A stretch of DNA of 64,000 bases from the NCBI GenBank assembly GCA_018401875.1, contig JAGYJZ010000003.1:62001-126000 (forward strand). Direction: 5' to 3'. This stretch comes from Salibacteraceae bacterium. GTDB lineage: Bacteria > Bacteroidota > Bacteroidia > Flavobacteriales_G > Salibacteraceae. Under the pieces are notes generated by a model that saw only the letters and a program-made list of their open reading frames with translations, had not been told where the DNA came from and searched no databases. Within the stretch, counting starts at the first letter, position 1; each line of letters begins with the position of its first letter. Shown here in pieces: positions 27,621 through 51,800 of this stretch. Position numbers and translations under genes: made by a program.

Positions 27621-29105
27621 CTAATGTTTTTCATTACTATTAATTCTGTCCCAAAGCACACGCCAAATCTCTACCATAGCCAGTGTATCAAGCTTACAGT
27701 ATGCCTTAAGGTCTGCCAAGGTTTTTACCAGGTTGCCTTCAAACCGGTTTTCAAGCATACTCAGGTAAACTTCACTGGCCGTGTTGCCATCTTGTATATC
27801 CAAGTCATCGTATTTGAGATCTGTCAAAGCAGGCAACACCTTCTTTATGGATGCTGAGCCATTCATGGCAGGCATATAACACCAATGACTACGGAATGGT
27901 ACGATAAGGTCAACCACCCGATCATGAATGGCCATTAATTCATCCGCATAGCTAGGGAAGCTCTCAGCCAAGGCTTTGATCTTTCCTTTTTCGAAGCCCA
28001 TGTTGTAGGTTACAATGCTGCCTTCCGTTCCCAAGTCAAGCAACATTTGTTGGATCACCGTCTCCCTTGGATCGCCCAAAGGATCGGCTAATAATTCTCG
28101 ATGCTCTAACTCACCATCAGGCGTATGCAGAATATGCAAGCTGTATTGATGTGGATATTGCTGGTAAGGTCGCGTGCCATCAAAAAGCGGTATAGAAGGT
28201 CCTATGGTCTCAAAATCGAAGAAGTACAAAGGATACTGCCATTCTGATAAGAAATCACGTATCGCGTTCTTATCAAAAACCTCCTTATTATACTTCTCTC
28301 CATCTACTTGATTGCGTTGTTTAGCATTCAAGTCTAAATCATCTGGAATATCCGTAATGGCAATAATTCCTTCGTTGAATAACTGCCAACCACGTGCACC
28401 GATGCGTGAAATATTCAATACATTTTGCTCTGGCACGTCCATCCAACAAAAACTTATAAAGTCACAAGGAAACGGATCGGAACAATGGGGACCAATTGCA
28501 ACCTCTGGTGGCGATGATTGTCTCAATATGGCTGAAAAAGCTTCTATGCGATCGGGAATCCCATTTTGTAACGGCAGGATTTCTTCCAAAACAGATTGCC
28601 GGGTAAATAGCTGGTTTAAATCCAACTCACCTTGTCTTTCATATTGGTTATTGATGTACATCACTTCAATGTCCACCAAGTGAATTCCTGCTTGCCTGAA
28701 TGCATAAAACTGAACTGCAGTATCATTGATGTGATAGGCCTTTACGCTTGTGCTACTTTTCACCTCTATTGCTTGCCATCCTCCTGCTTCCTTTACTAAT
28801 ATATCCATTGCAGCATAAATACCTCCCGCAGATACTGCAGCCTCGTAAATCACCTCTGCACCCTCTTCAATCCATTGCTTTGTTTGTTGCAATCCAACAG
28901 GAATTCCATCAGGACGACTAAAGTCTGGGGTGGCATCCTTTCCTCCAGGAAATATGTGCTGAGCTAACTCACCCACAGAAGATCCCTGAGCAAACAATGC
29001 CTCTTGTGCATAGCTAAGCGCATCTCGCAGGTCTGGCTGATGCTTGTCAAGCCACAATCGTTTTTCACATTGTAAGCCCTTAATGTATTTAGATTTTGAA
29101 AGCAT
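27621..29105 (-). CDS. DUF2779-domain protein (Cas4/RecB-like plus exonuclease-like region)
   Basis: 'MLSKSKYIKGLQCEKRLWLDKHQPDL', 'AIEVKSSTSVKAYHINDTAVQFYAFR', 'YFFDFETIGPSIPLFDGTRPYQQYPHQYSLH'. Confidence 0.85.
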   Translation of the reverse strand: MLSKSKYIKGLQCEKRLWLDKHQPDLRDALSYAQEALFAQGSSVGELAQHIFPGGKDATPDFSRPDGIPVGLQQTKQWIEEGAEVIYEAAVSAGGIYAAMDILVKEAGGWQAIEVKSSTSVKAYHINDTAVQFYAFRQAGIHLVDIEVMYINNQYERQGELDLNQLFTRQSVLEEILPLQNGIPDRIEAFSAILRQSSPPEVAIGPHCSDPFPCDFISFCWMDVPEQNVLNISRIGARGWQLFNEGIIAITDIPDDLDLNAKQRNQVDGEKYNKEVFDKNAIRDFLSEWQYPLYFFDFETIGPSIPLFDGTRPYQQYPHQYSLHILHTPDGELEHRELLADPLGDPRETVIQQMLLDLGTEGSIVTYNMGFEKGKIKALAESFPSYADELMAIHDRVVDLIVPFRSHWCYMPAMNGSASIKKVLPALTDLKYDDLDIQDGNTASEVYLSMLENRFEGNLVKTLADLKAYCKLDTLAMVEIWRVLWDRINSNEKH

Positions 29106-29139: not shown

Positions 29140-29532
29140 TTAAGCATAGTCAATGAAATCGAGCGTAAAAGCATTGGCACATAAGTTCCCTTTTAACTTC
29201 ATTTTTTTCATCCATTGATCTATTGCGTCTAATTCAGTTTGATCCGTAATCTTTCCTCGGAAATCAACATGATAAACGCTCTCTTCTCTCACGAGTAAGG
29301 CATGTCTATGGCATTCTTCTGTTCTATTCAACACCCGAAAACTAAACAAACGTCCTACACCTTCAAAGCATGGCCTCAAAAATCGGTTACCGATGATGGC
29401 GAGTCTCTCATTATCCCTATAAAACTCTGAAGGACTTATGTATTCTCTGATGACATAAATATTACTACCAGCAAGTATTACCTGGGGTTTGCTCCTTTTC
29501 TTTTTCCATGAAACCGGTGATTCAAATTCCAT
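29140..29532 (-). CDS. hypothetical protein, 130 aa, first gene of predicted island operon 2
   Basis: ORF preceded at 30 bp by the shared 27-bp motif; no family recognised. Confidence 0.7.
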   Translation of the reverse strand: MEFESPVSWKKKRSKPQVILAGSNIYVIREYISPSEFYRDNERLAIIGNRFLRPCFEGVGRLFSFRVLNRTEECHRHALLVREESVYHVDFRGKITDQTELDAIDQWMKKMKLKGNLCANAFTLDFIDYA

Positions 29533-29561
29533 TTGTTCTAATTACAAGAACAAACGTAAAG

Positions 29562-29588
29562 ACCCGGTCTGCCAAAAGCTGTCGGACT
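29562..29588 (-). promoter_or_regulatory. shared upstream motif copy 1 (AGTCCGACAnnnnTTGGCAGAnCGGGT)
   Basis: 22/27 identical to 32913-32939, both starting 30 nt upstream of a minus-strand start codon; followed by TACGTTTG, matching Bacteroidota -7 TAnnTTTG. Confidence 0.75.
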
Positions 29589-29646
29589 AAATAGATTTGG
29601 TAACAAGAAGAAAAAATTGATATTGAATCTCTAGTAAAAGAACACC

Positions 29647-30390
29647 TTATGTGCGAGTGTTTCTATTCCACAACCCTTGTCTAAACTTAGTAATATAGGA
29701 AAACTCCATTGCGCTGATTTCATCTTTTGTAGATTCATTCATACTATGAATTGCTATACCTATTTTTTTCCCAATTAGAATTTCATTATTGACTAACTGA
29801 TTAATTCTGACACTAGTAGCTTGGCCTCCTATTATACACTTCCGAGGTGTTACTTTCAAATAATTGGTCAGTCTTTCAAATGATGACTTTGCTTCGCCAA
29901 AGTATAAAGGACAAAACGATTCTAGATTATAGAAACAATAAACACCTTTTGACCTTATCAGTTCTTTGCGTGTCTCAGAATGAATATCAATAAAGCAATA
30001 TGGCCCAAAACTGCTTTCAAAAAGCAATAACTTATTTCTTCGATCGTGCTTATTAACCAGTTCCGGAAGTAATACCCTGAGAGGAGTTAAGAGCTCATCA
30101 CCATCAAAACTCATCAAAATTTCATGTTGTAATGCTTTCGAGCATTGATCATTTAGGGCGAGATCCATGGGTGTTGAGCTACTCCTGAGTAATGAAAAAT
30201 CCACATCAACATTCAATTGAATATTACGAATGGGAACTTCAGTAAATGAACTCAACCAATCTTTATCACATTTCTTTGACATTTTGTAGCTCCATGTTTG
30301 TTGGGTCTTTTTAATATTCAATGAATAATCCTTCAGATTTATAACTCTCTTCGAATTTTCATAATAATCAAACAAATCTGCATCACCCAA
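29647..30390 (-). CDS. hypothetical protein with C-terminal GIY-YIG-like domain
   Basis: 'SKGVYCFYNLESFCPLYFGEAKSSFERLTNYLK' fits G-V-Y ... Y-F-G ... R spacing of GIY-YIG. Confidence 0.6.
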   Translation of the reverse strand: MGDADLFDYYENSKRVINLKDYSLNIKKTQQTWSYKMSKKCDKDWLSSFTEVPIRNIQLNVDVDFSLLRSSSTPMDLALNDQCSKALQHEILMSFDGDELLTPLRVLLPELVNKHDRRNKLLLFESSFGPYCFIDIHSETRKELIRSKGVYCFYNLESFCPLYFGEAKSSFERLTNYLKVTPRKCIIGGQATSVRINQLVNNEILIGKKIGIAIHSMNESTKDEISAMEFSYITKFRQGLWNRNTRT

Positions 30391-30465
30391 AAGATCATCA
30401 CAAAAACTGGATAAGCAACAAGTTGATTGAACAAGATATAAATAGTATCGAAGCTCATAATTTTC

Positions 30466-30891
30466 TTAGTCTTTAATTAAAAATAAGAAGTGATGAATGC
30501 TCGCCCATTTTGCTAATATATCGAGCTCTTTTCTATGGATAGGTTTTGAAGGCCTACCTAGAACTTCGGTTATAACATTTCCCTCCGTCACGAATACAAT
30601 GTGGTTTTCAAGAAAATCGTTTTGCCAACGAGAAATATCCCAAACATGAATTCGCCCTTCCTCGCAGTCTTCAATTCTCTTATGAAGGTCATTCCTAAAT
30701 AGGAATGCCTCATTAAACAACTCGAAACCGTTCGTTAGCTCATGGAAACAATATTCCAAGCCGCGTTCAGATTTCAAGATGGTGTCTGAAATGCCTAATC
30801 CAGACCAAATCGAGATCAACAATGGCTCGGCATTCACTCTTTGAGCAGACAAGGTTCGTTGCTGCACTTCTTCAATTAGTCTGTTATTCAT
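30466..30891 (-). CDS. hypothetical protein, 141 aa, adjacent to the AAA+/M41 gene
   Basis: ORF separated by 3 bp from the upstream AAA+/M41 gene; no family recognised. Confidence 0.7.
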   Translation of the reverse strand: MNNRLIEEVQQRTLSAQRVNAEPLLISIWSGLGISDTILKSERGLEYCFHELTNGFELFNEAFLFRNDLHKRIEDCEEGRIHVWDISRWQNDFLENHIVFVTEGNVITEVLGRPSKPIHRKELDILAKWASIHHFLFLIKD

Positions 30892-30894
30892 TTC

Positions 30895-32883
30895 CTATGA
30901 TTTAGAGTGATTCAAGCTAGGATTAACCAATAGTTGGTATGTAGTCTGATCTGAATTTTCATTATCAAACAGCATACTCCTGTAATCTCCTTTTGATTCA
31001 ATTACTTCGAGTTGAAACTTATTCAATATCAATTGAAATTGCTCTCCAGTTAGTTTAGCCTCATTCGCTAATACCTTTGCTACCGTTTTCAAAACATGAA
31101 TATTCTTGTTCAATAATCCTCTTGCACGATCCGCATTATATTCAAGTAATCGTTTTACTTCGGCATTGGTATCATCGCACGGTCTTAGCGTATCGTCAAT
31201 AAAGATGCTCGACTCTGAAAACACCATTAGTTTACCCGACATACCCGAGGAATTAACCGCTGATTTTGCAAACTCCGTGGCAGCTCGCAAATCAGATTCG
31301 GCACCAAACGATATGTTGTCTTTTCCAAACACCAATTCTTCAGCGATCAATCCACCAAAGAGAATGGTGAGTTCATCCTGGAAGCGGGTTTTATTCATGA
31401 TCCGTTTTGAATACCTGCGTTCTACACATCCACTAATTGAATCGTTTGCACTTTGAGCAATGATCTGCTCTGGCACCTCATGATTCAACAAGTAATGCAG
31501 AAGTGCATGCCCCGCCTCATGCACCGCAACCAATGCCTGCATGTCGTCTTTCTTTGGCCTCTTAAGCTTTTCAATAAACGAAAACAGCTCATGCTTCAAA
31601 ACCAACTTTTCACCTCTATTGATCAACACTTTGTTTGATTCAATTTTCCAAATAAATACCTCGTCATTCTTTAGATCATGTTGTTTCGAGAAAAGCAATA
31701 AATGAGGCAATTGAGCATCCACCACACTTGAAATAGTCCCAAATAAAGGTCGCGCTCCATGGGCTGGTGTAACTCCTTCGGATATGATGTAGTCAATAAC
31801 AGAAGATTCGAATTCGCAGTTGATTCCAAACCTTACAGCAAGTTGATTGCGGGTAGACTCCAATTTCATTCCTACAATTTGTTTGAATTCTGAGGTTCCA
31901 AAAGCAGGATAAATCACGTGGTTATTGCCTAGCCTCGCCACTTGTTCGGGCCTAAACCTCTTCAATAGAGACTCCTTGATCTTACTCACCGAAATGTTTT
32001 CACTTTGTTTTCTAAGGTTATCTGCACTACTGTCGCTGCTCGTATTGCGACTCATCTGAAATGCCTCATCCAAATTTCCAACTACGAACACCAAGCACTT
32101 TGTGCAATCTATAATGATCGGGTTTAGACTGGCCTTGCACGCACGTTCCATAAGTTTCAGGCTTCCTATGTGGTCAAGGCTCAAAATTTGCTCCTTGAGC
32201 ACTGCATAGGAAGAGTATTCTCCTCTTAATTCCTCGTAAATATTTGCCCAATAATCCGTTGGGATAAACCAGTCTTTAGGCTTGCTATTTGAAGCTTCTG
32301 AAAGATTGCGAACCTCGTTTACTAGCTTCTTCCCTTTGGTGACTTTACCATTTTCAGCTTTCACTCCGCGTTCTACAAGAAAGTTCAGTTGACGCAACAG
32401 ATCATAAAGATCGTAGCGGCCAAACGACTGCTCATAGTATTGAATCTTTCCTGAATCAAATAAGTCCCAAATCGGCTGAACATCTAATAAATTTGTTTCC
32501 TTTCCGATTTCATCAATTGTTCTAGCATGTTGAAACTCATCCAGCAAAATGACATGCTCTTTTCCATTGCGCTCTTTGTAAAGGTTTTCGAGTTTTGCTA
32601 AGAAACCTGTTCTCCTGCCCCTTCCAGTATCTAGAACCGTAGAATAATCGTTGAAATCAAGAAGGGTGATGAGCTCGCGAACAAGTTGTGTTTTTCCTGA
32701 ACCGGTCAATCCCCAAAGATTTATGATTACCGGTCGAGTTTGTAAATCGGGTAAAGCATACCAAGGAGTAACAAGATGGATGACTTGATCTATGATCTCA
32801 TCTAATCCAACAAATTTTGATTTCAGCTTTTTACGAGCGTTTTCCAGGGTCTGAAGTCTCCTGTTCAGTTCTTTTGTACTCAT
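30895..32883 (-). CDS. chimeric Clp/HSP100-type AAA+ ATPase fused to C-terminal FtsH-like peptidase M41 domain
   Basis: Walker A 'GLTGSGKT', Walker B 'HVILLDEF', 'KRFRPEQVARLG', sensor-2-like 'GARPL'; then zinc motif 'HEAGH' and third-ligand region 'FGAESDLRAATEFAKSAV' as in FtsH. Confidence 0.88.
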   Translation of the reverse strand: MSTKELNRRLQTLENARKKLKSKFVGLDEIIDQVIHLVTPWYALPDLQTRPVIINLWGLTGSGKTQLVRELITLLDFNDYSTVLDTGRGRRTGFLAKLENLYKERNGKEHVILLDEFQHARTIDEIGKETNLLDVQPIWDLFDSGKIQYYEQSFGRYDLYDLLRQLNFLVERGVKAENGKVTKGKKLVNEVRNLSEASNSKPKDWFIPTDYWANIYEELRGEYSSYAVLKEQILSLDHIGSLKLMERACKASLNPIIIDCTKCLVFVVGNLDEAFQMSRNTSSDSSADNLRKQSENISVSKIKESLLKRFRPEQVARLGNNHVIYPAFGTSEFKQIVGMKLESTRNQLAVRFGINCEFESSVIDYIISEGVTPAHGARPLFGTISSVVDAQLPHLLLFSKQHDLKNDEVFIWKIESNKVLINRGEKLVLKHELFSFIEKLKRPKKDDMQALVAVHEAGHALLHYLLNHEVPEQIIAQSANDSISGCVERRYSKRIMNKTRFQDELTILFGGLIAEELVFGKDNISFGAESDLRAATEFAKSAVNSSGMSGKLMVFSESSIFIDDTLRPCDDTNAEVKRLLEYNADRARGLLNKNIHVLKTVAKVLANEAKLTGEQFQLILNKFQLEVIESKGDYRSMLFDNENSDQTTYQLLVNPSLNHSKS

Positions 32884-32912
32884 CTATTCTTAATTTGAGT
32901 ACAAAGGACTTC

Positions 32913-32939
32913 ACCCGCTCTGCCAATTTGTGTCGGACT
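32913..32939 (-). promoter_or_regulatory. shared upstream motif copy 2
   Basis: AGTCCGACACAAATTGGCAGAGCGGGT, 30 nt upstream of the AAA+/M41 start codon. Confidence 0.75.
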
Positions 32940-32969: not shown

Positions 32970-33881
32970 CTATCCGTTATAAAACTCGTTCAATTGCTTA
33001 ATCCAATCCCCCATTTCTTCCCTTAGCCATTGAGGCTCTAAGATTTCCACTTCAGGGCCTTTCATGAGTATACGTTGCTTAAACTCATAGTTTGGCGCGA
33101 GGTAAAAACCGATTAATACCGAGTCTTCATTCTCTTCTAATAGCATTTGAGATATATGCAGCGGTTGAGATAATTGGTACTTAGCTTCTTTGGTGGTATA
33201 CCTCACTTTAATTTGGCACTCTTCTCCTTCTGAGTATATCAGGCCTACAATAGATCGCAACCTGTCAATGACTTTATCGCGTTCGCTTTTCTCAAACGCT
33301 TCCTCTGTAAGTTCTAAGGATTGAATTCTCTCCAATCCGAATGTTCTAATTTCTTTCCAGTGGGTCTCAAACCCAATCAAGTACCATCTTCCCAAGTATT
33401 CCTTCAGCAGGTATGGATATAAATTGTGAGGCTTAGCTTTATCTGAGCTAAATGATTTGTAATCAAACTTAACCTTCACTTTGGCTTTCATAGCTTCAAG
33501 AAGAACAGGAAAATACTCAAAACCTCCCTCTACCTCTTCATTCACATCAAAATCCACAAAATTCATCACCTGCTTTGCGTCCTTCATGGAATCAATTAGA
33601 AACGATGCTTTATCGGCTAGCTGAAATAGGTGAATGAATCGGTTGAGGTTTACTTCGCTTTCTGATTCAACATAATATCCTCGTGCGTCACGATCATAAG
33701 CAATCTCAATACTTAGATCATTTCGAATTTCATGAAACTTGCGTTCAATGGTTCTGGTGGAAAGATTCAAACCTCTATTCTCCAATATTACTTGCAGGTC
33801 ATCTAAACTGGGATAAGTTTTCGACTTTAAAGCCCGAATGATCGTATGATATTCTTTCCAAGTTTGACTGCGTTTTGACAT
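32970..33881 (-). CDS. WYL-domain transcriptional regulator
   Basis: N-terminal HTH-like region, 'YLLKEYLGRWYLIGFETHWKEIRTFGLERIQSLE' WYL motif, C-terminal WCX-like extension. Confidence 0.92.
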   Translation of the reverse strand: MSKRSQTWKEYHTIIRALKSKTYPSLDDLQVILENRGLNLSTRTIERKFHEIRNDLSIEIAYDRDARGYYVESESEVNLNRFIHLFQLADKASFLIDSMKDAKQVMNFVDFDVNEEVEGGFEYFPVLLEAMKAKVKVKFDYKSFSSDKAKPHNLYPYLLKEYLGRWYLIGFETHWKEIRTFGLERIQSLELTEEAFEKSERDKVIDRLRSIVGLIYSEGEECQIKVRYTTKEAKYQLSQPLHISQMLLEENEDSVLIGFYLAPNYEFKQRILMKGPEVEILEPQWLREEMGDWIKQLNEFYNG

Positions 33882-39831: not shown

Positions 39832-42800
39832 TTATTTAAGAATCGTAACTGGTCCAGTAATTAAGTTTTTCACTTGATCGTCCTTCAGATCAATTACGTA
39901 GTAGTAAGTACCCACGGTAAGTTCTTTACCATTGTGTTTGCCGTTCCAAGGATTCGTGTACCCAGCAGAAGACTCATAGATTAGGTTACCCCAACGGTTG
40001 AATATCTGAACAATCGCATTTGGGTATCGGTCAATGCGATCGATCAAGAAGAATTCATTCACTCCGTCACCGTTTGGTGAGAATCCTCCAACTGGGTCGA
40101 CCAAGTCTTCAACAGTTACCGTCATGCTATCCACGCCAAAACAACCGTCAGCATCTGTAGCGCTTACATAGTAAGTAATGGTTTCCAATGGATTCGCTTG
40201 AGGATTGTACTCTGTTACACTGGTCAAATCACGTGCTGGTGTCCACACAACATCTACACCTGAATTGGCCGTTGGCGCTCCACCGATGGATGTAATTCCG
40301 CCCGGCTCGATGGTTTTATCAGGGCCAGCGTCAACACCCGGACCTGGAGTCCACGAGATTCTCAAGGTGTCGCGAGCAACACACACATTATTGATTCCTT
40401 CGTAAATGATGGTAGTAGTTTGCTCGGTCGTATTTACTACGGTTGAGTTTCCACTGCCAATCACCACACCATTTGATCTCAACCATCGGGCCGATGATGC
40501 ACCTGAGTTTGTGCCGGTAACAGTTATTTCATTGCTAAACGGACACACCTCAAAATCATCCATTACCGTTACATCTACAAAGAACTCTGTGTCAATCGTG
40601 AATGAATCAGTGATGATACAACCCGATGCATCGGTAACGATCAAGGTATAGTCGCCTGCAATAACTCCGGTTAAATCAGACGCAGTCAGAATTGAAACTG
40701 AATCGCTGATCCAATTGTAGGTGTATGGCGCGGTGCCGCCTGTTACAGTGATTTGCACTTCTCCGTCACCCGTATTGGTGCAGGTGGCATTGTTGATAGA
40801 ATCAAGCGTAATCACCATCGGTGATGGTCCGCCCGCGGTTTGAGTAGTAATAAATGTACATCCGTTGGCATCCGTTACAGTGAGCGTATATGCTCCTGCG
40901 CACAATCCTGCGATGGTGCTATCAGTTTCGCCATTGCTCCAAGCGAATGAGTAAGGAGTTGTTCCGCCAGTGATGCTTACATCTATCGTTCCATCACAAT
41001 CAGCACCGCACGTCACGTCTGTAATTTCTACAGACTGCAGGTTGATCTCTGTTGGTTCACTGATGGTATAGATATCAAACGAAGCACAAAGGTTCGCATC
41101 TAAAACCGCAATCGTGTCATTGCCCGCACAAAGCGAGTCGATGTCATCTGTGGTGTCTCCGTTCGACCAAAGGATGGTGTATGGTGCTGTTCCTCCAGAG
41201 ATGGTAGTGTTTATTTCACCATCGCACTCGCCAAAACAACTCACATCCACCAAAAGATCGAGGTCGATCACTGGCGCATTAGCATTGTTTAAGATGAATC
41301 CAGAGGTATCTGTACAACCGTTTGCATCAACAATCTTCAAGGCATAGATTCCAGCGAACAAGTTTGTAGCTACACTATCGGTTTGCGCGGGAATCAAAGG
41401 CGTTCCAAAAGCATCGAGCCATTCGTAGGTGTATGGTCCGCCATTTCCACCGGCTGCGGATACCGTGATTGAACCATTATTCACCTGACAATCAGGATTC
41501 ACTTGAGAAATCAAGTTTCCTACTATTGGCGCAGGATCATCGATCACAAATTCTAGGCTATCAGAGCATCCGGCAGTATCTGTAATGGTAACACTGTAGG
41601 TTCCACCGCACAAATCTGTGATTGCAAGGGTGGTGTCGCCTGTATTCCAAAGAATGCTGTACGGTGGATTTCCACCGGCCACGTTGATGGCTATGTTTCC
41701 ATCACATTCGCCCGGACAAGTGACATCATTCACCACAGAAGTGATGGTGAATGGTTGTGGGTCAGCCAACTCAACAGAGTCGATGATGGTTGCTCCGTTG
41801 TCATCGGTCAGCGTTAAAACGTATGTACCTGAACAAAGACCAGTGATCAATGATGCAGTGGCACCGTTTGACCAGGCAAAATTGTATGGAGGAACTCCGC
41901 CTGTTGCAACAGCATCAATTTCACCATCGCAGCCGTTGCCAGCGCATGAAATCTCGATCACGTCAAACGTTACATCCAATACATCTGGTTCAGTAATGGT
42001 AATGGTATCAATGGTTGAACATCCGCTGCCATCAGTTACTGTAACAATGTAAAATCCTGCACACAAGTTAGAGGCCGTTTGCGTGGTTTGTCCATCAGAC
42101 CATAAGTAGGTGAGGGGAGTAACCAAGGAGTTTACCGTGGCTGTTCCGTCACACACACCACTCGCTGAAGTGTTTGTTGATGTCAATAAAATACCAGGGC
42201 CGTTTATTTCAGATACGGGATAACCAAACACTTCAAAGCAACCTGAAGCATCTGTTACCGTGAGGTCATAAAAGCCTAGGCAAAGTGACCCTAAGGTATC
42301 TGATGCAGCGCCCGTTGACCATGCATAGGTGAAACCACCTGCTCCACCCGCGATTGTTGGGATGATAGATCCATCGCACACGCCACATGTGGCATCGTTT
42401 ACTATTACAGCAGTTTGAACAATTGCTGCTGGTTCAGTGATAGTGAATGTATCGAGCGTTGTACAGCCATTAATGTCGGTCACCGTTAGGAAATACGTTC
42501 CAGCACACAGTCCGCTTGCGAGCGATAATCCATTGCCATTTCCAGGCACTGGACTCCAATTGAATGAGTAGTTTCCTGCACCTCCTGAGGCAGTGATCGA
42601 AATAGAGCCGTCACATACTCCGTTGCACGAGGCATCTGAGATGGTGCTTGCAAGAACGATTTCTGTAGGTTGGTCAATGACGAACGTGGCGATTGAATCG
42701 CAGCCCGCACCATCACTAATTGTAACGGTATAACTGCCTGCACAAAGTCCTGCATTCGTTGCGGAGGTTGATCCGTTGCTCCACGCAAAGGTGAATACTC

Positions 42801-45800
42801 CAGAACCACCCGTTGGTGCCAAGGCAATAGACCCGTCACATGCGCCAAAGCATGAGGCGTCAGTAATCGTTTCATTCGGGTCGATGAGGTCGGGAACATT
42901 CACAGAAACGATGTCTGAGCTTATACAACCTGCACCATTTGTCAACTCAACACTGTATGTTCCAGCGCAAAGGTTTGAGATGGTATCAGTTGTTCCGATC
43001 ACCAATCCGGTGCCAAGGTCAGTCCATTCAATCGTGCAAAGCGGACTTGTGCACGTGTATGAAGCAAATACTTGACCATCGCAATTTCCGCAAGAGGCAT
43101 CAACACTGTCGGCTGTTACAAGATCAGCACCATTGGCGTTGATGGCAGCATTCGCTACCAAAGTACAACCATTAGCATCGGTGATCGTAACTTGGTTCAA
43201 TCCGGCACAAAGTGCGTTATTGGTCGCTGTGGTTTGACCATTGTCCCATGCGAATGAATACGGTGCACCTGCAGCGGGAAGTGGGTTAGCCGTGGCTGTT
43301 CCGTCACACACGATGCAACTTGAATTTGTTATTCCTGAGAAGGTGTTTGTGATTGGAGCAGGGTCAACCAGTAAAATACAGAACTGCTCTATACACCCGT
43401 TGGCATCGGTAATATCAACACAATGATTTCCTGCGGGAAGTCCAGTTTCTGTTTGGGCAGTGTTACCAGAAGCCCATAGATAGGTGTACGGACCAGTGCC
43501 TCCTCCGCCAGTGATTGTTGCTGAGCCATTTGCATCACCAGCACACAATGGGTTGGTTACCCCTGAGAATACTCCTGTAATGGCTGCAGGGTCGGTCAAT
43601 ATCACCGTATCAAGTGCGGTACATCCACCAGCGTCTGTGACTTCTACAATGTACGATCCTGCAGAAAGTGAGTTCAATGTATCAGTGACGAACACTCCGT
43701 TCCAGATGAACGAGTACGGTGCAGTGCCTCCAGTGGCTGCAGCTGCAACCGATCCATTGTTGTCGCCATTACAAAGCAAGGTGTTGATTGCAAAGGCATT
43801 TACCGATACGCCATTGGCAGGCTCATCGATGATCACGCATGCCGTGTCTGTACAACCCAATGCGTCCGTTACCGTTACGCAATGCACACCAGCGCTGAGC
43901 GAAATGGCAGTGGTAGTTGTTTCTCCATTATCCCAAAGAACAGTGTAACCAGGTGTTCCTCCTGTAGCTGAAACAGATGCTGATCCATCAGCACCGCCAG
44001 GGCAAGACACATTGGAAATGAATACCGTTGAAGCCACAACAGCTGTTGGCTCTGTAATTGAAATCGTATCGAGGCTAACGCAACCTGAGTCGTTCGTCAA
44101 TTGGGCATAATATGTTCCTGCACTCAGACCCGTGGCTAAATCTAGATTACTGACAACCGCTCCTGAGGCAGAATCGATCCAAGCGATGGTGCACGGAGCA
44201 ACGTTACAGTTGTATGTTGCCAAGGCAGAGCCATCGTTTCCACCATTGCAGGTAGCGTCAGTTACTACAGCAGCGAAAACAGTATCAGCACCGAGGCTTC
44301 CAATGTTTACAAAGAAGGTATCAACGCAACCATTAAAATCGGTTACTGTCACTGCATTGGTTCCAGCGCAGAGGCTGGTTCCGTTGGCTGTTGTTGATCC
44401 ACTCGCCCAAGCAAATGTGTAAGGCGCTGTGCCATTGGTAATGGTTACTGTGGCTGTTCCGTTGCACGTGCCACATGCTGAAACCGTAGTTCCAGAGAAC
44501 GAAGCAGTCATTGCAGCTGGATTCACCACATTCACAGTGCTGTTTCCTGAACATCCGCTTGCGTCTGTTACGGTGTAAGCGTAAGTGCCTGCAGAAAGAT
44601 TTGTTCGTGTGGCGTTTGTAGATGCATCATCCCAAAGGAAGGTATAAGGTCCTCCGTCTCCGCCTGCTCCCGTGAGCGTTACCGAACCATCATTGCCATT
44701 CGGACACGTTGGCAATGCAACGGCTGTGGTGGCGGTCACTGGCAATGGGTCAACAATAGTTACGCATGCGGTATCCTCACACACCCCACCGTCACTTACC
44801 GTTACACAGTAAGAGCCGGCTGGCAATAATACCGTGGCTGTTGTTTGACCATTTGGCCATAAGAAAGTGTACGTTCCACTTCCACCTGCTCCAGAAGCGG
44901 TGATGGAAGCGCTGTCTCCAGTGCATGAAGGTTGTGAATTAACCACCAATGAAGCACTTAACCCCGTAGCGGGTTGATTGATCATGATGTTGTCTGTTGC
45001 AATACATCCATTCGCATCTGTTACGGTAAGGATTACCATTCCTGCGGGCAGCGAATCAGCGGTTGCGCCAACATCGCCATTTGACCATGTCAATGTATAA
45101 GGTGCGGTGCCGCCACTTCCTGCTCCAGTTGCCGAACCGTCAGTTCCATTGAAACAAAGGTTGTCTACGCTGCCAGTAATTGTAGCAACAAGTAAAGTGG
45201 GTTCATCAATCGTTACCGAAGCTGAATCAACACATAATGTGGTAAGGTCGGTTACAGTTACGGTGTGGAGTCCTGCTGTTAGGTTGGAAACAATAGCGGT
45301 TGTAGAACCATTATCCCACGCAAAAGAATAGGCTCCCGAACCGCCTGTTATTACTTGTACTTCGGCCTCACCATTGGTGTTTCCATTACAATCAATGTCT
45401 GTGCTATCAACAATAGCCACGGTAAAGTTTCCTGGAGGATTCAAGAAGTAGGAAGCATTGTTTTGACATCCATTTGCATCCGTAGCGGTAACGCTGTAGG
45501 TGCCGGTAGTTAAACCAGTGATCGAATTTCCTGTGGAACCTGTATTCCATAAATACGTGTGGGCGCCTGTTCCACCGATGGAAGCCACGATAATCGCTCC
45601 GTCATTTCCAGGGCCAACGCATGAAATGGGCGTTTCCGTAAAGGTGAAGGTAATTGCATCAGGGTCAGAGATACTTACACACGCTGTATCGGTGCATCCA
45701 AGTGCATCCGTAACGGTAACACAATGTATACCTGAATCGAGAGCAATGGCTAATGCGTTGGTTTCACCGTTATCCCACACAAATGTGTAGGGTGCTGTGC

Positions 45801-48800
45801 CGTTTGTTCCCTGCGCAAGGGCAGAGCCATCGCTTGAGCCGTCACACAATGCGTTGATCGGATTACTGATTGATGCAACAAGGTTAGAAGGGGCATTTAC
45901 CGTTACTTGAGCGGTGTCGGTGCATCCGTTATTGTCTGTTACAGTAACAATGTAGGTTCCAGCATTTAAATTTGAAATGGTGTCGGTGGTTCCGCCATTA
46001 CTCCAAGCATAGGTATATGCTGGCGCTCCGCCTGAAACGGTTACACTGGCGACTCCATTGGCTACACCGCATGCAGCATCAGTAGAATCCATAACAAGAT
46101 TCAGTGGAGAAGGCGCGTTGATAATAATAGTATCATAACCATCACATCCAAAGTTCGTGGTTAATCTTCCTAAATAAGTTCCAGGACAAAGACCTGTAAT
46201 AAGATCTCCAGTCCCTATAAGGTTCGTAGTATCCAGTCCACTATACCATCTGTATGGTTGACAACCAAAGAAACACGTATAATTTGCATCTGCAGTTCCA
46301 TCGCAAGTATTGGCGCAACTAGCTGCGGTTGCTGTAATAGTAACGTTAGGAACAAAATTATCACTGACATTAACGGCATTTGAGTCCACACAACCATTGG
46401 CATCAGTAACCGTAATACCATAAGGGCCAGAACATAAAGCTGTAAGTTGATTTGTTGTGGTTGCAACACTATTAACCACACCATTACTCCAACTGTATGT
46501 GAATGGAGCCAATGCCCCAGTAACAGTAGCTGTTGCTGTCCCCGTGCAAACAAAACAGAAGCTATTTGTCGATGCAATTCCAACATTAATTGCCGCACCA
46601 TTTGGTAAGGTAGTGCTCGCAGTAACTGTACATCCATTGGCATCGGTTACCGTTACTGTATTTAAACCTGCGCTTAAGCCAACGGCAGCTGCTGTTGTCT
46701 CACCGCTGGTCCATAAGAATGTATATGGTGCATCGCCACCGGATGGCGCTACCGTTGCTTGTCCGTCATTGCCACCAAAACATGTTGGCGCTGCACTAGA
46801 CACTATTGAGGCCAACACTGGAGCTGGTTCACCGATCGTGAAATTCACCACATCGCTGCACGTTCCATCTGCAGCGGTAACGGTATAATTGCCTGCCGGT
46901 AAAACGCTAGATGACGCTCCCGAACCAACGCTTGACCAAGTATATGTGAAGTTTTGAGTAGTCGGAATGAAGGCTACATAATCATTGGTAGCACTGAAGT
47001 TGGTCAAGTTTCTTCCTGGCACTGCATACGCTTCAGTACCAGCAAAATTTTCAATTCCTTGCACCAATGGACTGCCATTAGGATTCAGCGCTTCAGAGTG
47101 GATCTGAATAATGTTTGACGTTTCGTATAAAACGATTTGGAATGTAGAAAGAATATTTGGAGACGGTGCTGCGAAATGATCAATATCGATGTAGTTGACG
47201 ACACGAACACGGTTTGGCGCAGTTCCAATCAAATATGTTTCCAAAGTTGTTACCCCCGTTGAAGGGTCTAAGTCGTCCCAATAAGCAGCGATAAAATCTC
47301 TTGGAGTGTTAGGTGCCGCACTTGGAATAGCTGTTGGAACTGAAAACTGACCATTCACCTGACCACTGTTCGGATTGGATAAATCAAAGGTGATGAACCC
47401 TTGAGAGTTCATGATAAAATGCGTGTGGTTGACGCCAAAGAAGCTAAAGTTTGCACCTCCGAAAATGTTGATGGTATCAGAAGTAGCGTCATCATCCAAG
47501 GTGATTGACTTATAGTTATGTGCATTCCACGGACGTCCTTGTGGATAGGGCTCGTATTCGCCTTCTGTTTGGTCGATGACGTATTCAGCGGTGCTTGTTG
47601 GGGCAACAGTTCCTCCATAAGCCGATAAAAATGCCGCTCCATCGGCAACTCCGTTGCAGCTCGCGCTATCCGTACTATCCACAACGGCATAAATTGAAGG
47701 TGGCTCAACCAAAGCCAGGGTTTCAACAATTTGACATCCATTGGCATCCGTCATGGTTACAGTATGTCCGCCACCGCAAAGACCTGTGGCCGAAGCTGCG
47801 GTAGAACCTGAACTCCATGCAAAAGTAATTGGGCTCGTTCCACCTGAAATGGTTGCTGAAGCTGCTCCATCGCAGGCGTCATCGCAACCTGGGTTTGTTA
47901 TTCCTGTAAACCCTCCAAACACCAAAGTATCTGGCTCAGTAATAATTGCTGTATCAACAGCTGAACAGCCGTTAGCATCCGTAATCGTTCCGATGTATGT
48001 GCCTGCTACAAGGCCAGCAATCGTATCCGTAGTTTGTCCATTGCTCCATGCGTATGTGTAAGGTAGTGTTCCACCAGCGCCCGTGATTACTGCAGAACCG
48101 TCATTGCCTCCATTGCATGTAACGTTGGTTAAGTTTAACGAAGATTTATCGAGGACCATACCAAAGGGTCGTACTTGAAAAGCTGCAAGGTCATTCCAGA
48201 AGTAACTGGCGCCAACGAATTCAATATAGTCTTCGTCACCACCAAAGTTGTTTGGCTCACCGGCATTCCAATTGAAATAAGTGGCTACCGTGCCATCAAC
48301 CCAAACATAAGTTCCTTCTACAACTTCATCCGTAAGACCAATCCAGCTATTGCCTGGTAAAACAGAACTGTAATACGCTTGATCAGTTGCATCGCTAATT
48401 ACTATAAGATCTCCCCCCGCAGCCAAAGCTGTCGCGCGAGCAGCGGTCCATGTTTGACTTGCCGCGTGATAGTATATAAACTCATTGCCATTCTCACCGA
48501 TATAAGTAAACCCGGGGATAACTGGCGGAGAATAAACTGTAGCAGAAAGAACGGTTGGCTCATCGATTACGACAGATGCCGTATCGGTGCAACCATTCGC
48601 ATCGGTAAGGGTAACCGTGTACGTTCCTGCTGGCACATTGACCAGTGAGTCGTTTGTGCTTCCGTTTGACCATGCATAAGTAATTGGTGCTGTGGCTCCA
48701 GTATTTGAAACAGTAGCTGTTCCGGTATTATCACCGTTGCACAATACATCGTTGACAAGAACGCCCGAGGCGGTCCAATTACAAGAGCATGAATCTGCCA

Positions 48801-51800
48801 CAATCACCTGAGCAGTGTCAGAACAGTTATTGACGTCAGTAACCGTAGCGATGTATGTACCAGCATCTAAGTTAGAAATCGTTTGTGTTGTTCCACCGCC
48901 TGTCCATGCAAATGTGAGAGGTGCTGTTCCGCCAACAACTGTCACTGAGGCTGAGCCATCATTTGTAACACAGCTTTCGTTGGTTATGAGCACGCCAGTT
49001 GCAGTGAGTGTTGGCGCAGCATCAAGTATTACTGATGCACTATCTGTACAGCCGTTGCCATCTGTAGTTGTAACGATATACGTTCCTGCGGGAAGTGCGG
49101 TAATCAGCGCTGATGTCCCTCCATTGCTCCAAGCATAGCTCAATACTCCTGTTCCACCTGTGGCTAATGCTTCTGTAGAACCGTCATTATTTGCGCATGT
49201 TGGGTTTATTGAATCAATGATAGAAACATTTAGCGCGGTAGGATCAACTAAGGTAAAGGTTGTATCATCTTGGCAACCAGCACCATCAGTAACGGTGAGT
49301 GTGTATGTTCCCGCGGGGATTCCATTTAGGAACTGGAACGTAGCTCCTGTTGACCATGCATAACTAAACGGTAACGTTCCTGTTCCGCCCACTACGCCTC
49401 CAATTGCTGAACCTGAACTTTCTCCCGCACATGTGGGGTCAAAAACAGAAACAGAAGCCACTACACCAACGCCATCAGTGATTACCACACTGTCTATCGC
49501 TTGGCATGAATTATTGTCTGTAACGGTTACTAGATAAGTACCCGCTGCAAGATTAGATATGGTATCTATTGTTGCACCCGTTGACCAAGAAAAAGTATAA
49601 GGACTCGTGCCTCCGGTTGGAGTTACTGAAGCACCACCATTATTGACACCAGCACACGAAGTATTGGTTGAATTGAATGTGAGTGAAATAGCCGTAGGTG
49701 CTGTCATGTTCTCCGTCTCAGTATCCGTGCATCCGTTAGCATCAGTCAATGTAACGGTATAAATGCCTACTCCTAATCCCGTGATTGAGGATGTTGTTGC
49801 ACCTGTGCTCCAAAGGAAGGTGTAAGGTGGAGTTCCGCTGCCTGGAAATCCAATGGCAGAAATGCTGCCGTCAGTTGCACCAAAGCAGGAGATTTGGGTT
49901 GTATTCGTAAATACTAAAGGAATGCTTGTTGGCGAATTTACGGTTCCACTTCCCGTTCCAGAGCATCCATTGGCATCGGTAACGGTTACATCGTAAACAC
50001 CACCCGCCAATCCTGTGATGTTAGCTGTCGTTCCGCCATTGCTCCAGGCGAACGTCAGTGGCGCAGTTCCACCGGTAAGCGATGCAGTTGCTGTCCCGTC
50101 AGAAAGGCCAAAACATGATACTCCGGTAGTTGTAACCGTTGCTGCTAATCCAGTAGCAGGCTGGTCAATAACCACCGTTTCATCATCGGTGCAACCGTTG
50201 GCATCCGTTGCCGTAACTGTATAACTTCCAGCTATTAAGCCATTGATTGACTGCGTGGTTGCTCCTGTAGTCCATAGATAAGTGTAGCCGGGCGTGCCTC
50301 CAGTGGCATTGTTCGCAGTAGCTGTTCCATCATTTCCTCCAATACAGCTCACATCTGTTGATGATGCCGTAACGCTCACTGCACTCAGCGGCTGGGCAAC
50401 AGCTTGTGAAGCCACATCATCACAGCCATTTACGTCCGTTACGGTAACGGTGTAATTACCAGCAATGAGCGAAGAGATGGTTTGGTTTGTAGAGCCTGTG
50501 CTCCAAAGAAAAGTATATCCTGGCGAGCCGCCTGCACCGTTTGCAGTAAGCTGACCGTCAGAACCAAGAAAACAACTTACATCACTGTCTAAGTTGATCG
50601 ATGCCACCACCGCTGCTGGATCAGTGAGGGTAATGGATATATTGTTGGTACATCCTGAAGCATCTGTTGCTGTAACAGAATATACTCCTGCCGTGAGGTT
50701 CGTAATTGTGGGGGTTGTAGCTCCAGTGCTCCACAGAAAAGTAAAAGGCCCGCCATTAGAACCCGATGCAGATGCTGTGATTGAACCATCAGCATCTCCT
50801 GCACACGATGGCTGAGTGAGCACTGTGTCAATTACGATTGGTGTAGGCTCTGCGATGGTAAACTGCACCGTATCTGAGCAGCTTCGCGCATCGCTGATGG
50901 TTACTGTATAGTTTCCTGCTGTAAGGTTCGTAGCTGATGTACCTGAACCAATTGCTGACCAACTGAGTGTGAAGTTTTGGGTTTCTGGAATGAATGCGAT
51001 GTAGTCGTTCGTTGCCGACCAGTTTGCGGCTGTTCTTCCGGGTGCCGCAAATGCGATTGTTCCAGTACTATTCTCAATGCCTTGGGTGTGATTGCCTCCA
51101 TCAGAAGGAAGGTTTGAACCAAAGATTTCAATGATGTTTGAAGTTTCATGGAGCACGATTTGAAAAGTTACTTCATTTGCACTGCCAAAATGAGGTACTT
51201 CTATAAAATTGACGACCAAGGCTCGATTAGCGCCTGCACCGATGGTATAAAATTCAATTTCACCGCCAACTGCAGGGTTGAGGTCTTCCCAATATGCAGC
51301 AATTAAATCATTGGGTAATCCCGCGGCAGGGATATTCTGTCCGCTGCAACATCCATTTGCTGCGCTTCCAGAAAACGTGATAAATCCGTTAGACGAAATC
51401 CTGAAATTAGTGTAGGTATTGCCAAAAAACTCAAAACTGAAACCAATCGGTAAAACTGGCGATACTTGATCATCGCCTAACGCTACAGATGTGCCACCTG
51501 CAAAAGATGTGTCATACGGCTCGAATGTACCTTCGGTTTGGTCGATGATATAGCCTGCAGTAGAAGTAGACGGGCCGTATCCCCCGTGAGGCGAAAAATA
51601 GGCTTGACCGTCATTTCCACCATTGCAGGTTGCATCAAACGTAGAATCCACTGTGGCGAATATTGCAGGACCATCGGGTATGACTACTTGATCGACCACT
51701 TGACAACCGCCAGCTTCAGTAACCGTTACTGTTCTTACCCCGCCACATAGTGCACTATTTGTAGGACCCACCGTAGAACCGTCATCCCATAAATAGGTTC

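What the first reader, a model, noticed from the sequence alone, without database searches (positions are those of the whole stretch)
29562..32939. A 27-bp motif shared by two promoters at identical distance from the start codon
Reading on the minus strand: AGTCCGACAGCTTTTGGCAGACCGGGT (29588-29562) and AGTCCGACACAAATTGGCAGAGCGGGT (32939-32913). By eye 22/27 positions match. Each copy starts 30 nt upstream of an ATG (29532 and 32883). The core is an imperfect inverted repeat with an 8-5-8 layout (GTCyGACA-N5-TGGCAGAs). A TTTG sits at the same offset downstream in both, within TACGTTTG for site 1, which fits the Bacteroidota -7 consensus TAnnTTTG. This suggests joint control of both operons, plausibly by the adjacent WYL protein.
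Basis: partly seen in the sequence, partly recalled or inferred. Interest (0 to 1): 0.8.

Follow-up and report, generated by a model that had tools for sequence, protein, structure and literature searches.

The report
Shared WYL-regulator promoter box
Two neighbouring operons of a probable anti-virus gene cluster carry the same control box, and comparison with dozens of other bacteria of the same group shows that this box, at a fixed distance from the promoter core, goes with genes for one type of regulator (WYL proteins), so it can be used to find such gene clusters.

Summary
In detail: 22/27 identity, both copies ending 29 nt before an ATG. Chance gives about 6.6 such pairs somewhere in 64 kb, but only about 3e-4 at equal offset before two of 60 genes. 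The motif occurs nowhere else in the genome (<=3 mismatches). Orthologous WYL/AAA-M41 modules elsewhere carry the same box before the AAA-M41 gene; some also before the DnaB-like or DUF2779 gene. Consensus: CTACGACA-N5-TGKCGTAG, then TAnnTTTG at near-invariant spacing. Searched by pattern alone in 395 genomes, it gives 44 sites against 3 for the reversed control; in 21 of 27 new genomes a site lies within 8.5 kb of a WYL gene (chance about 0.5% each). The box matches the target of the Caulobacter WYL activator DriD in sequence and place. Best reading: operator of the adjacent WYL protein, giving joint control, more likely activation than repression. Binding, sign and ligand are untested; one of two ssDNA-binding arginines of known WYL activators is Gly or Ala in all 17 aligned homologs.

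The parts
29562..29588 (-). Site 1: AGTCCGACAGCTTTTGGCAGACCGGGT; core CGACA (29584-29580), N5, TGGCA (29574-29570)
   Evidence: matrix from other genomes 25.5 bits, top of 64 kb
29551..29558 (-). -7 element TACGTTTG of the site 1 promoter; predicted start of transcription near 29546
   Evidence: fits TAnnTTTG; same spacing to the core as in relatives; transcription start inferred from published -12 to -5 numbering
32913..32939 (-). Site 2: AGTCCGACACAAATTGGCAGAGCGGGT; core CGACA (32935-32931), N5, TGGCA (32925-32921)
   Evidence: 22/27 to site 1; in the position where orthologous AAA-M41 genes carry the box
32902..32909 (-). Degenerate -7 element GTCCTTTG of the site 2 promoter
   Evidence: same offset as in site 1; lacks the TA of TAnnTTTG
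32970..33881 (-). WYL-WCX regulator, 303 aa, proposed binder of both sites; helix LSTRTIERK with R43 and R47
   Evidence: Pfam WYL 1e-14 and WCX 5e-8; model closest to DriD, PafBC, BrxR and CapW
30895..32883 (-). AAA ATPase (ClpB D2-small type) fused to an M41 peptidase, 662 aa; first gene behind site 2
   Evidence: Pfam M41 2e-21, ClpB_D2-small 1e-9; WYL neighbour in 19 of 23 loci
30466..30891 (-). 141-aa protein of unknown family, same operon
   Evidence: no family match; a gene of similar size lies here in L044
29647..30390 (-). 247-aa protein, GIY-YIG-like by eye (GVYCFYN..LYFGEAKSS)
   Evidence: no Pfam hit; UvrC N-domain only at E 0.13
29140..29532 (-). 130-aa protein of unknown family, first gene behind site 1
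   Evidence: no convincing family match
27621..29105 (-). DUF2779 / Cas4-like (PD-(D/E)XK) protein, 494 aa, operon of site 1
   Evidence: Pfam DUF2779 2e-40; also near AAA-M41 in L044, L123, L130, L135
26583..27614 (-). DnaB_C-type helicase, 343 aa, end of the site 1 operon
   Evidence: Pfam DnaB_C 1e-68; the relative in L122 has its own copy of the box

Best explanation
The two 27-bp copies are operators of the adjacent WYL protein (32970-33881), built into two sigma-A-type promoters. One drives the AAA-M41 operon, the other the 130 aa / DUF2779 / DnaB-like operon, so that the parts of one probable defence module are switched together. The box (CTACGACA-N5-TGKCGTAG in the family) covers about -38 to -24 (core) at a fixed distance from the -7 element TAnnTTTG. 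Proposed mechanism: a WYL dimer, its two winged helices reading the CGAC/GKCG half-sites around the place of sigma region 4, holds RNA polymerase on promoters that are weak without it, after a signal (single-stranded DNA or another nucleic acid made by infection or damage) binds the WYL/WCX domains. Shown here: the sites, their conservation, fixed spacing, restriction to WYL-linked loci, and fold similarity. Inferred: binding by this WYL protein, activation rather than repression, the ligand, and the defence role.
For: Conserved box before AAA-M41 genes in other WYL-linked modules from several families. Three copies in L122, including before the DnaB-like gene, and one 33 nt before DUF2779 in L123. 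Leave-locus-out matrix finds them. Core-only scan: among hits of 11 bits or more TTTG ends 18 nt behind the core in 14 and 17 nt in 4, other offsets 1-2 each. WYL gene beside AAA-M41 in 19 of 23 loci. Loci without WYL (L046, L129, L130) or with R43 lost (L106, L135) lack the CGAC form, p = 8e-4; L106 uses GTCTATCA-N5-TGATAGAC before both its WYL gene and its operon instead. Pattern-only search: 44 sites vs 3 control, 21 of 27 new genomes have WYL within 8.5 kb. In 14 module genomes every hit with <=1 mismatch lies in the module. DriD: consensus ATACGAC-N7-GTCGTAT, site centred on the -35 element, constant distance to the -10. SiwR and PafBC also act at -26. Model best matches DriD.
Against: No binding or expression data. 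Site 2 is off consensus (GTCCTTTG; 13.8 bits, below the simulated maximum of 16.9). No box was recognised before the window's own WYL gene, nor in WYL-linked L126, L135 and L047. Of the two arginines needed for ssDNA binding in PafBC and SiwR (R-x-x-R), the second is Gly in the window and Gly or Ala in all 17 aligned homologs, so the ligand may differ. BrxR and CapW, also WYL regulators of defence loci, are close in fold (Z 12.6 and 11.7 against 14.0 for DriD), and BrxR is a repressor. A site over -38 to -24 would also suit a repressor. In Flavobacterium the -33 element is weak anyway, so its absence says little.
Confidence: 0.66

Rival explanations
1. The box is the operator of a WYL repressor (BrxR/CapW manner): the dimer blocks the promoter until a phage signal releases it.
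For: BrxR binds two 27-bp boxes (11-bp arms, 5-bp spacer, only one arm well conserved) in a defence island and represses; fold close; the known ssDNA arginine pair is not kept.
Against: The BrxR box lies downstream of the -10 element, whereas here the box lies upstream of -7 at a near-invariant distance, as in DriD.
Confidence: 0.27
2. The box is read by something other than the adjacent WYL protein, for example a SOS/LexA-like repressor or an alternative sigma factor.
For: No binding data exist; some sites (most in G071 and G152; L187, L192, L194, L196) have no WYL gene within the fetched stretch.
Against: The Bacteroidota SOS boxes are GGA-N5-TCC and CTAA-N5-TTAG, which do not fit; the -7 part is the sigma-A type; strong linkage to WYL genes and link to the WYL recognition helix.
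Confidence: 0.05
3. Chance or recent duplication of a piece of DNA, without function.
For: About 6.6 pairs of this quality are expected somewhere in 64 kb.
Against: Same offset before two starts (3e-4), and the same box at the same place in distant genomes.
Confidence: 0.01

Closest known systems
DriD of Caulobacter crescentus and its promoters (didA, bapE, CCNA_03891)
   Same: HTH-WYL-WCX regulator; target ATACGAC-N7-GTCGTAT, natural didA site ACGTCCGTTTCTGGCG; site covers the -35 place at fixed distance from the -10; best fold match
   Different: Other phylum and promoter type (-7 TAnnTTTG); regulator sits beside its targets; ssDNA arginine pair not kept; DriD serves DNA-damage genes, here probable defence modules; sequence identity only about 18%
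SiwR and PafBC of mycobacteria
   Same: WYL activators acting at the -26 region; SiwR controls the neighbouring operon through a 19-bp imperfect palindrome upstream of -10
   Different: PafBC is a heterodimer acting by sigma adaptation; other targets; R-x-x-R pair in WYL kept there, R-x-x-G here
BrxR / CapW regulators of defence loci
   Same: WYL protein in a defence-like locus; 27-bp imperfect inverted repeat with 5-bp spacer; two sites in one island
   Different: BrxR box lies between promoter and gene and represses; here the box lies upstream of -7 at fixed spacing

Membership tests
DriD-type WYL activators | HTH, WYL and WCX domains in one ~300-aa chain | tested here: met
   Pfam WYL and WCX; AF2 model pLDDT 86.9; DriD best, Z 14.0 C-domain and 12.9 full length
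DriD-type WYL activators | Target ATACGAC-N7-GTCGTAT | tested here: met
   Family consensus CTACGACA-N5-TGKCGTAG; the window copies keep CGAC-N7-GGCA only
DriD-type WYL activators | Site over the -35 place at constant distance from the -10 | tested here: met
   TTTG 18 nt (14) or 17 nt (4) behind the core; DriD geometry from the paper
DriD-type WYL activators | Two WYL arginines (R-x-x-R) for ssDNA binding | tested here: not met
   Window R-T-F-G; second position Gly or Ala in all 17; essential in PafBC and SiwR. Hence described as working like DriD, not filed as a member
DriD-type WYL activators | Activates transcription on ssDNA binding | not testable with these tools
   needs protein and reporters
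BrxR/CapW repressors | Operator downstream of the -10 box | tested here: not met
   box lies upstream of the -7 element in the aligned sites; BrxR layout
BrxR/CapW repressors | Represses | not testable with these tools
   needs expression data
Bacteroidota LexA-like SOS boxes | GGA-N5-TCC or CTAA-N5-TTAG | tested here: not met
   half-sites CGACA/TGKCG differ
Bacteroidota sigma-A promoter | -7 element TAnnTTTG | tested here: met
   site 1 TACGTTTG and most relatives; site 2 only TTTG

The most novel reading that the evidence does not exclude
Bacteroidota have a widespread promoter class in which a WYL activator of the DriD manner takes the place of -33 recognition, marking modular, probably anti-phage gene cassettes (AAA-M41, other AAA ATPases, DEDDh exonucleases, GmrSD, DUF2779, DnaB-like). 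A single 34-bp pattern finds them, and the clade senses a ligand with an altered WYL pocket.
Probability: 0.5. Interest if true: 0.75.

Novelty: new variant of a known kind. Interest (0 to 1): 0.6.

Why it matters
WYL proteins stand beside many defence systems, but operators and sign of control are known for few, and the papers found here give none in Bacteroidota. A box with fixed promoter spacing lets one assign regulons, find modules from DNA alone (21 of 27 new genomes led to a WYL gene), and test directly whether WYL control of defence is activation or repression. The resemblance to DriD over a phylum border suggests one conserved recognition code of WYL winged helices.

Tried and rejected
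The 27-bp pattern, even with up to 6 mismatches, found no convincing site in the loci of the AAA-M41 relatives; only reading the upstream regions showed the conserved core. The genome-contig search mostly returned a Chryseobacterium/Saprospiraceae AAA-M41 subfamily; no WYL was found in the eight of these checked. Two viral contigs match the short core; not followed, chance is likely. Recombination or mobile-element ends: rejected because the box points at a gene with a -7 element and a start codon. RNA element: rejected because the box lies upstream of the predicted transcription start. PADLOC, Pfam and NCBIfam name no system for the window module.

Full report
1. Observation. By base composition a pair this good is expected about 6.6 times somewhere in a 64-kb window but about 3e-4 times at equal offset before two of 60 genes. 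A pattern from both copies, with up to 3 mismatches, matches only these two places in the 2.62-Mb genome (82% complete) and nothing in 34 other genomes of the family.

2. Surroundings. Minus strand, in order of transcription: WYL-WCX regulator, [site 2], AAA-M41 fusion, 141 aa, 247 aa (GIY-YIG-like by eye), [site 1], 130 aa, DUF2779/Cas4-like, DnaB_C helicase. PADLOC does not name a system. Relatives of the AAA-M41 protein are sporadic (5 of 395 phylum genomes, 19 of 395 class genomes, the window's own included), as is usual for defence genes, and 19 of 23 loci have a WYL gene close by. Neighbours in other loci are DUF2779, DnaB-like, PD-(D/E)XK, UDG-fold and GmrSD proteins. A defence role is therefore likely but inferred.

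3. The box in relatives. Reading upstream of the orthologous AAA-M41 genes shows the same element: e.g. L104 CTCCGACATACTTTGGCG, L043 CTCCGACATGTTTTGGCG, L045 CTACGACATATTTTGGCG, L124 CTTCGACATGCTTTGGCG. L122 has three copies, before a 175-aa gene, AAA-M41 and the DnaB-like gene. L123 has them before AAA-M41, a 210-aa gene and, weaker, DUF2779. L105 has three, one towards its divergent WYL gene. In L125 the true AAA-M41 start reveals CGCCA-N5-TGGCG with the same spacing. A matrix trained without the tested locus puts these sites top in nearly all cases; in the window it puts site 1 first at 25.5 bits and site 2 third at 13.8 bits against a simulated maximum of 16.9. So site 2 is a degenerate copy, supported by its place and by its likeness to site 1 rather than by its own score. 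The strict pattern CGNCA-N5-TGNCG occurs upstream of 12 of 22 non-window AAA-M41 genes where 0.28 is expected; some of these loci had helped to define the motif, so this is descriptive.

4. Fixed spacing. A matrix of the core alone, without the -7 element, still finds TTTG ending 18 nt behind the core in 14 hits and 17 nt in 4, with 1-2 at any other offset. In a further genus the last bases are CTTG at the same distance. With the published numbering of the -7 box (-12 to -5), the core covers -38 to -24.

5. Who reads it. Three AAA-M41 loci without WYL (L046, L129, L130) lack the box. Two loci whose WYL has lost the first helix arginine (L106 Ala, L135 Ser) lack the CGAC form, and L106 has its own palindrome GTCTATCA-N5-TGATAGAC before both its WYL gene and its operon (Fisher p = 8e-4 on my own scoring of the loci). 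In 14 module genomes every match with <=1 mismatch lies in the module, while matches with up to 3 mismatches are no more common than the reversed control. Finally, the pattern CGACANNNTTTGGCG-N11-TANNTTTG (<=1 mismatch), searched without any protein, gives 44 sites in 32 of 395 class genomes against 3 reversed controls. Of 27 genomes not chosen by AAA-M41, 21 have a site within about 8.5 kb of a WYL gene; a random point has a chance of about 0.5%. These modules have other effectors: AAA ATPases, DEDDh exonucleases, GmrSD. Positions left free in the pattern are also biased, which with the upstream bases seen gives about CTACGACAtryTTTGGCGTAG.

6. Mechanism. DriD of Caulobacter binds ATACGAC-N7-GTCGTAT; its sites cover the -35 place at constant distance from the -10 on promoters with poor elements; it is an activator switched by ssDNA. 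SiwR and PafBC act at -26. The box here has the same core, length and place. The AF2 model of the WYL protein matches DriD best (Z 14.0), with BrxR 12.6, PafBC 12.3 and CapW 11.7 close, so fold alone does not settle the sign. BrxR represses from a box downstream of the -10. I therefore favour activation, about 0.66 against 0.27 for repression. Against a simple transfer from DriD: the second arginine of the ssDNA pair is Gly or Ala in all 17 homologs, so the ligand is open.

7. Known or new. WYL operators and activators are known; a WYL box in Bacteroidota with fixed promoter spacing and this breadth was not found in the papers searched (open-access library only). I call it a new variant of a known kind.

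Noticed in passing
L190-L191, L202-L208 (genomes G071, G152): Two genomes of one genus have 4-5 DriD-like palindromes (CGACAMGTTTTGTCG type) each with -7 element, mostly not beside a WYL gene; in G152 three stand before near-identical 557-562 aa proteins (MKKFYTGAFFLCAVLSMSAQ...).
   Followed up: no
L185, L195, L197, L199, L200, L215, L216, L188: The box recurs before a family of 358-395 aa proteins with an AAA domain in the C-terminal half and, in several, a motif like YLNEFTxFxAHFNxIPN; possibly an unnamed WYL-controlled system.
   Followed up: partly
L183, L163, L166: DEDDh (RNase_T) exonucleases, PADLOC candidate PDC-S48 in L183, stand beside the box; in L183 the exonuclease gene starts right behind it.
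   Followed up: partly
L048-L097: A second AAA-M41 subfamily in Chryseobacterium and Saprospiraceae, about 28% identical; no WYL gene in the eight loci checked.
   Followed up: no
29647-30390 (-): 247-aa protein looks like a GIY-YIG nuclease by eye (weak UvrC match, E 0.13).
   Followed up: partly
39832-53454 (-): 4540-aa repeat-rich secreted protein with gliding/T9SS-type C-terminus (NGKELTVGTYYYVIDL), SprB-like.
   Followed up: no
L187:8421 (+): A strong box (32.7 bits) stands before what looks like an IS1595-type transposase gene, with no WYL gene found in 17 kb.
   Followed up: no
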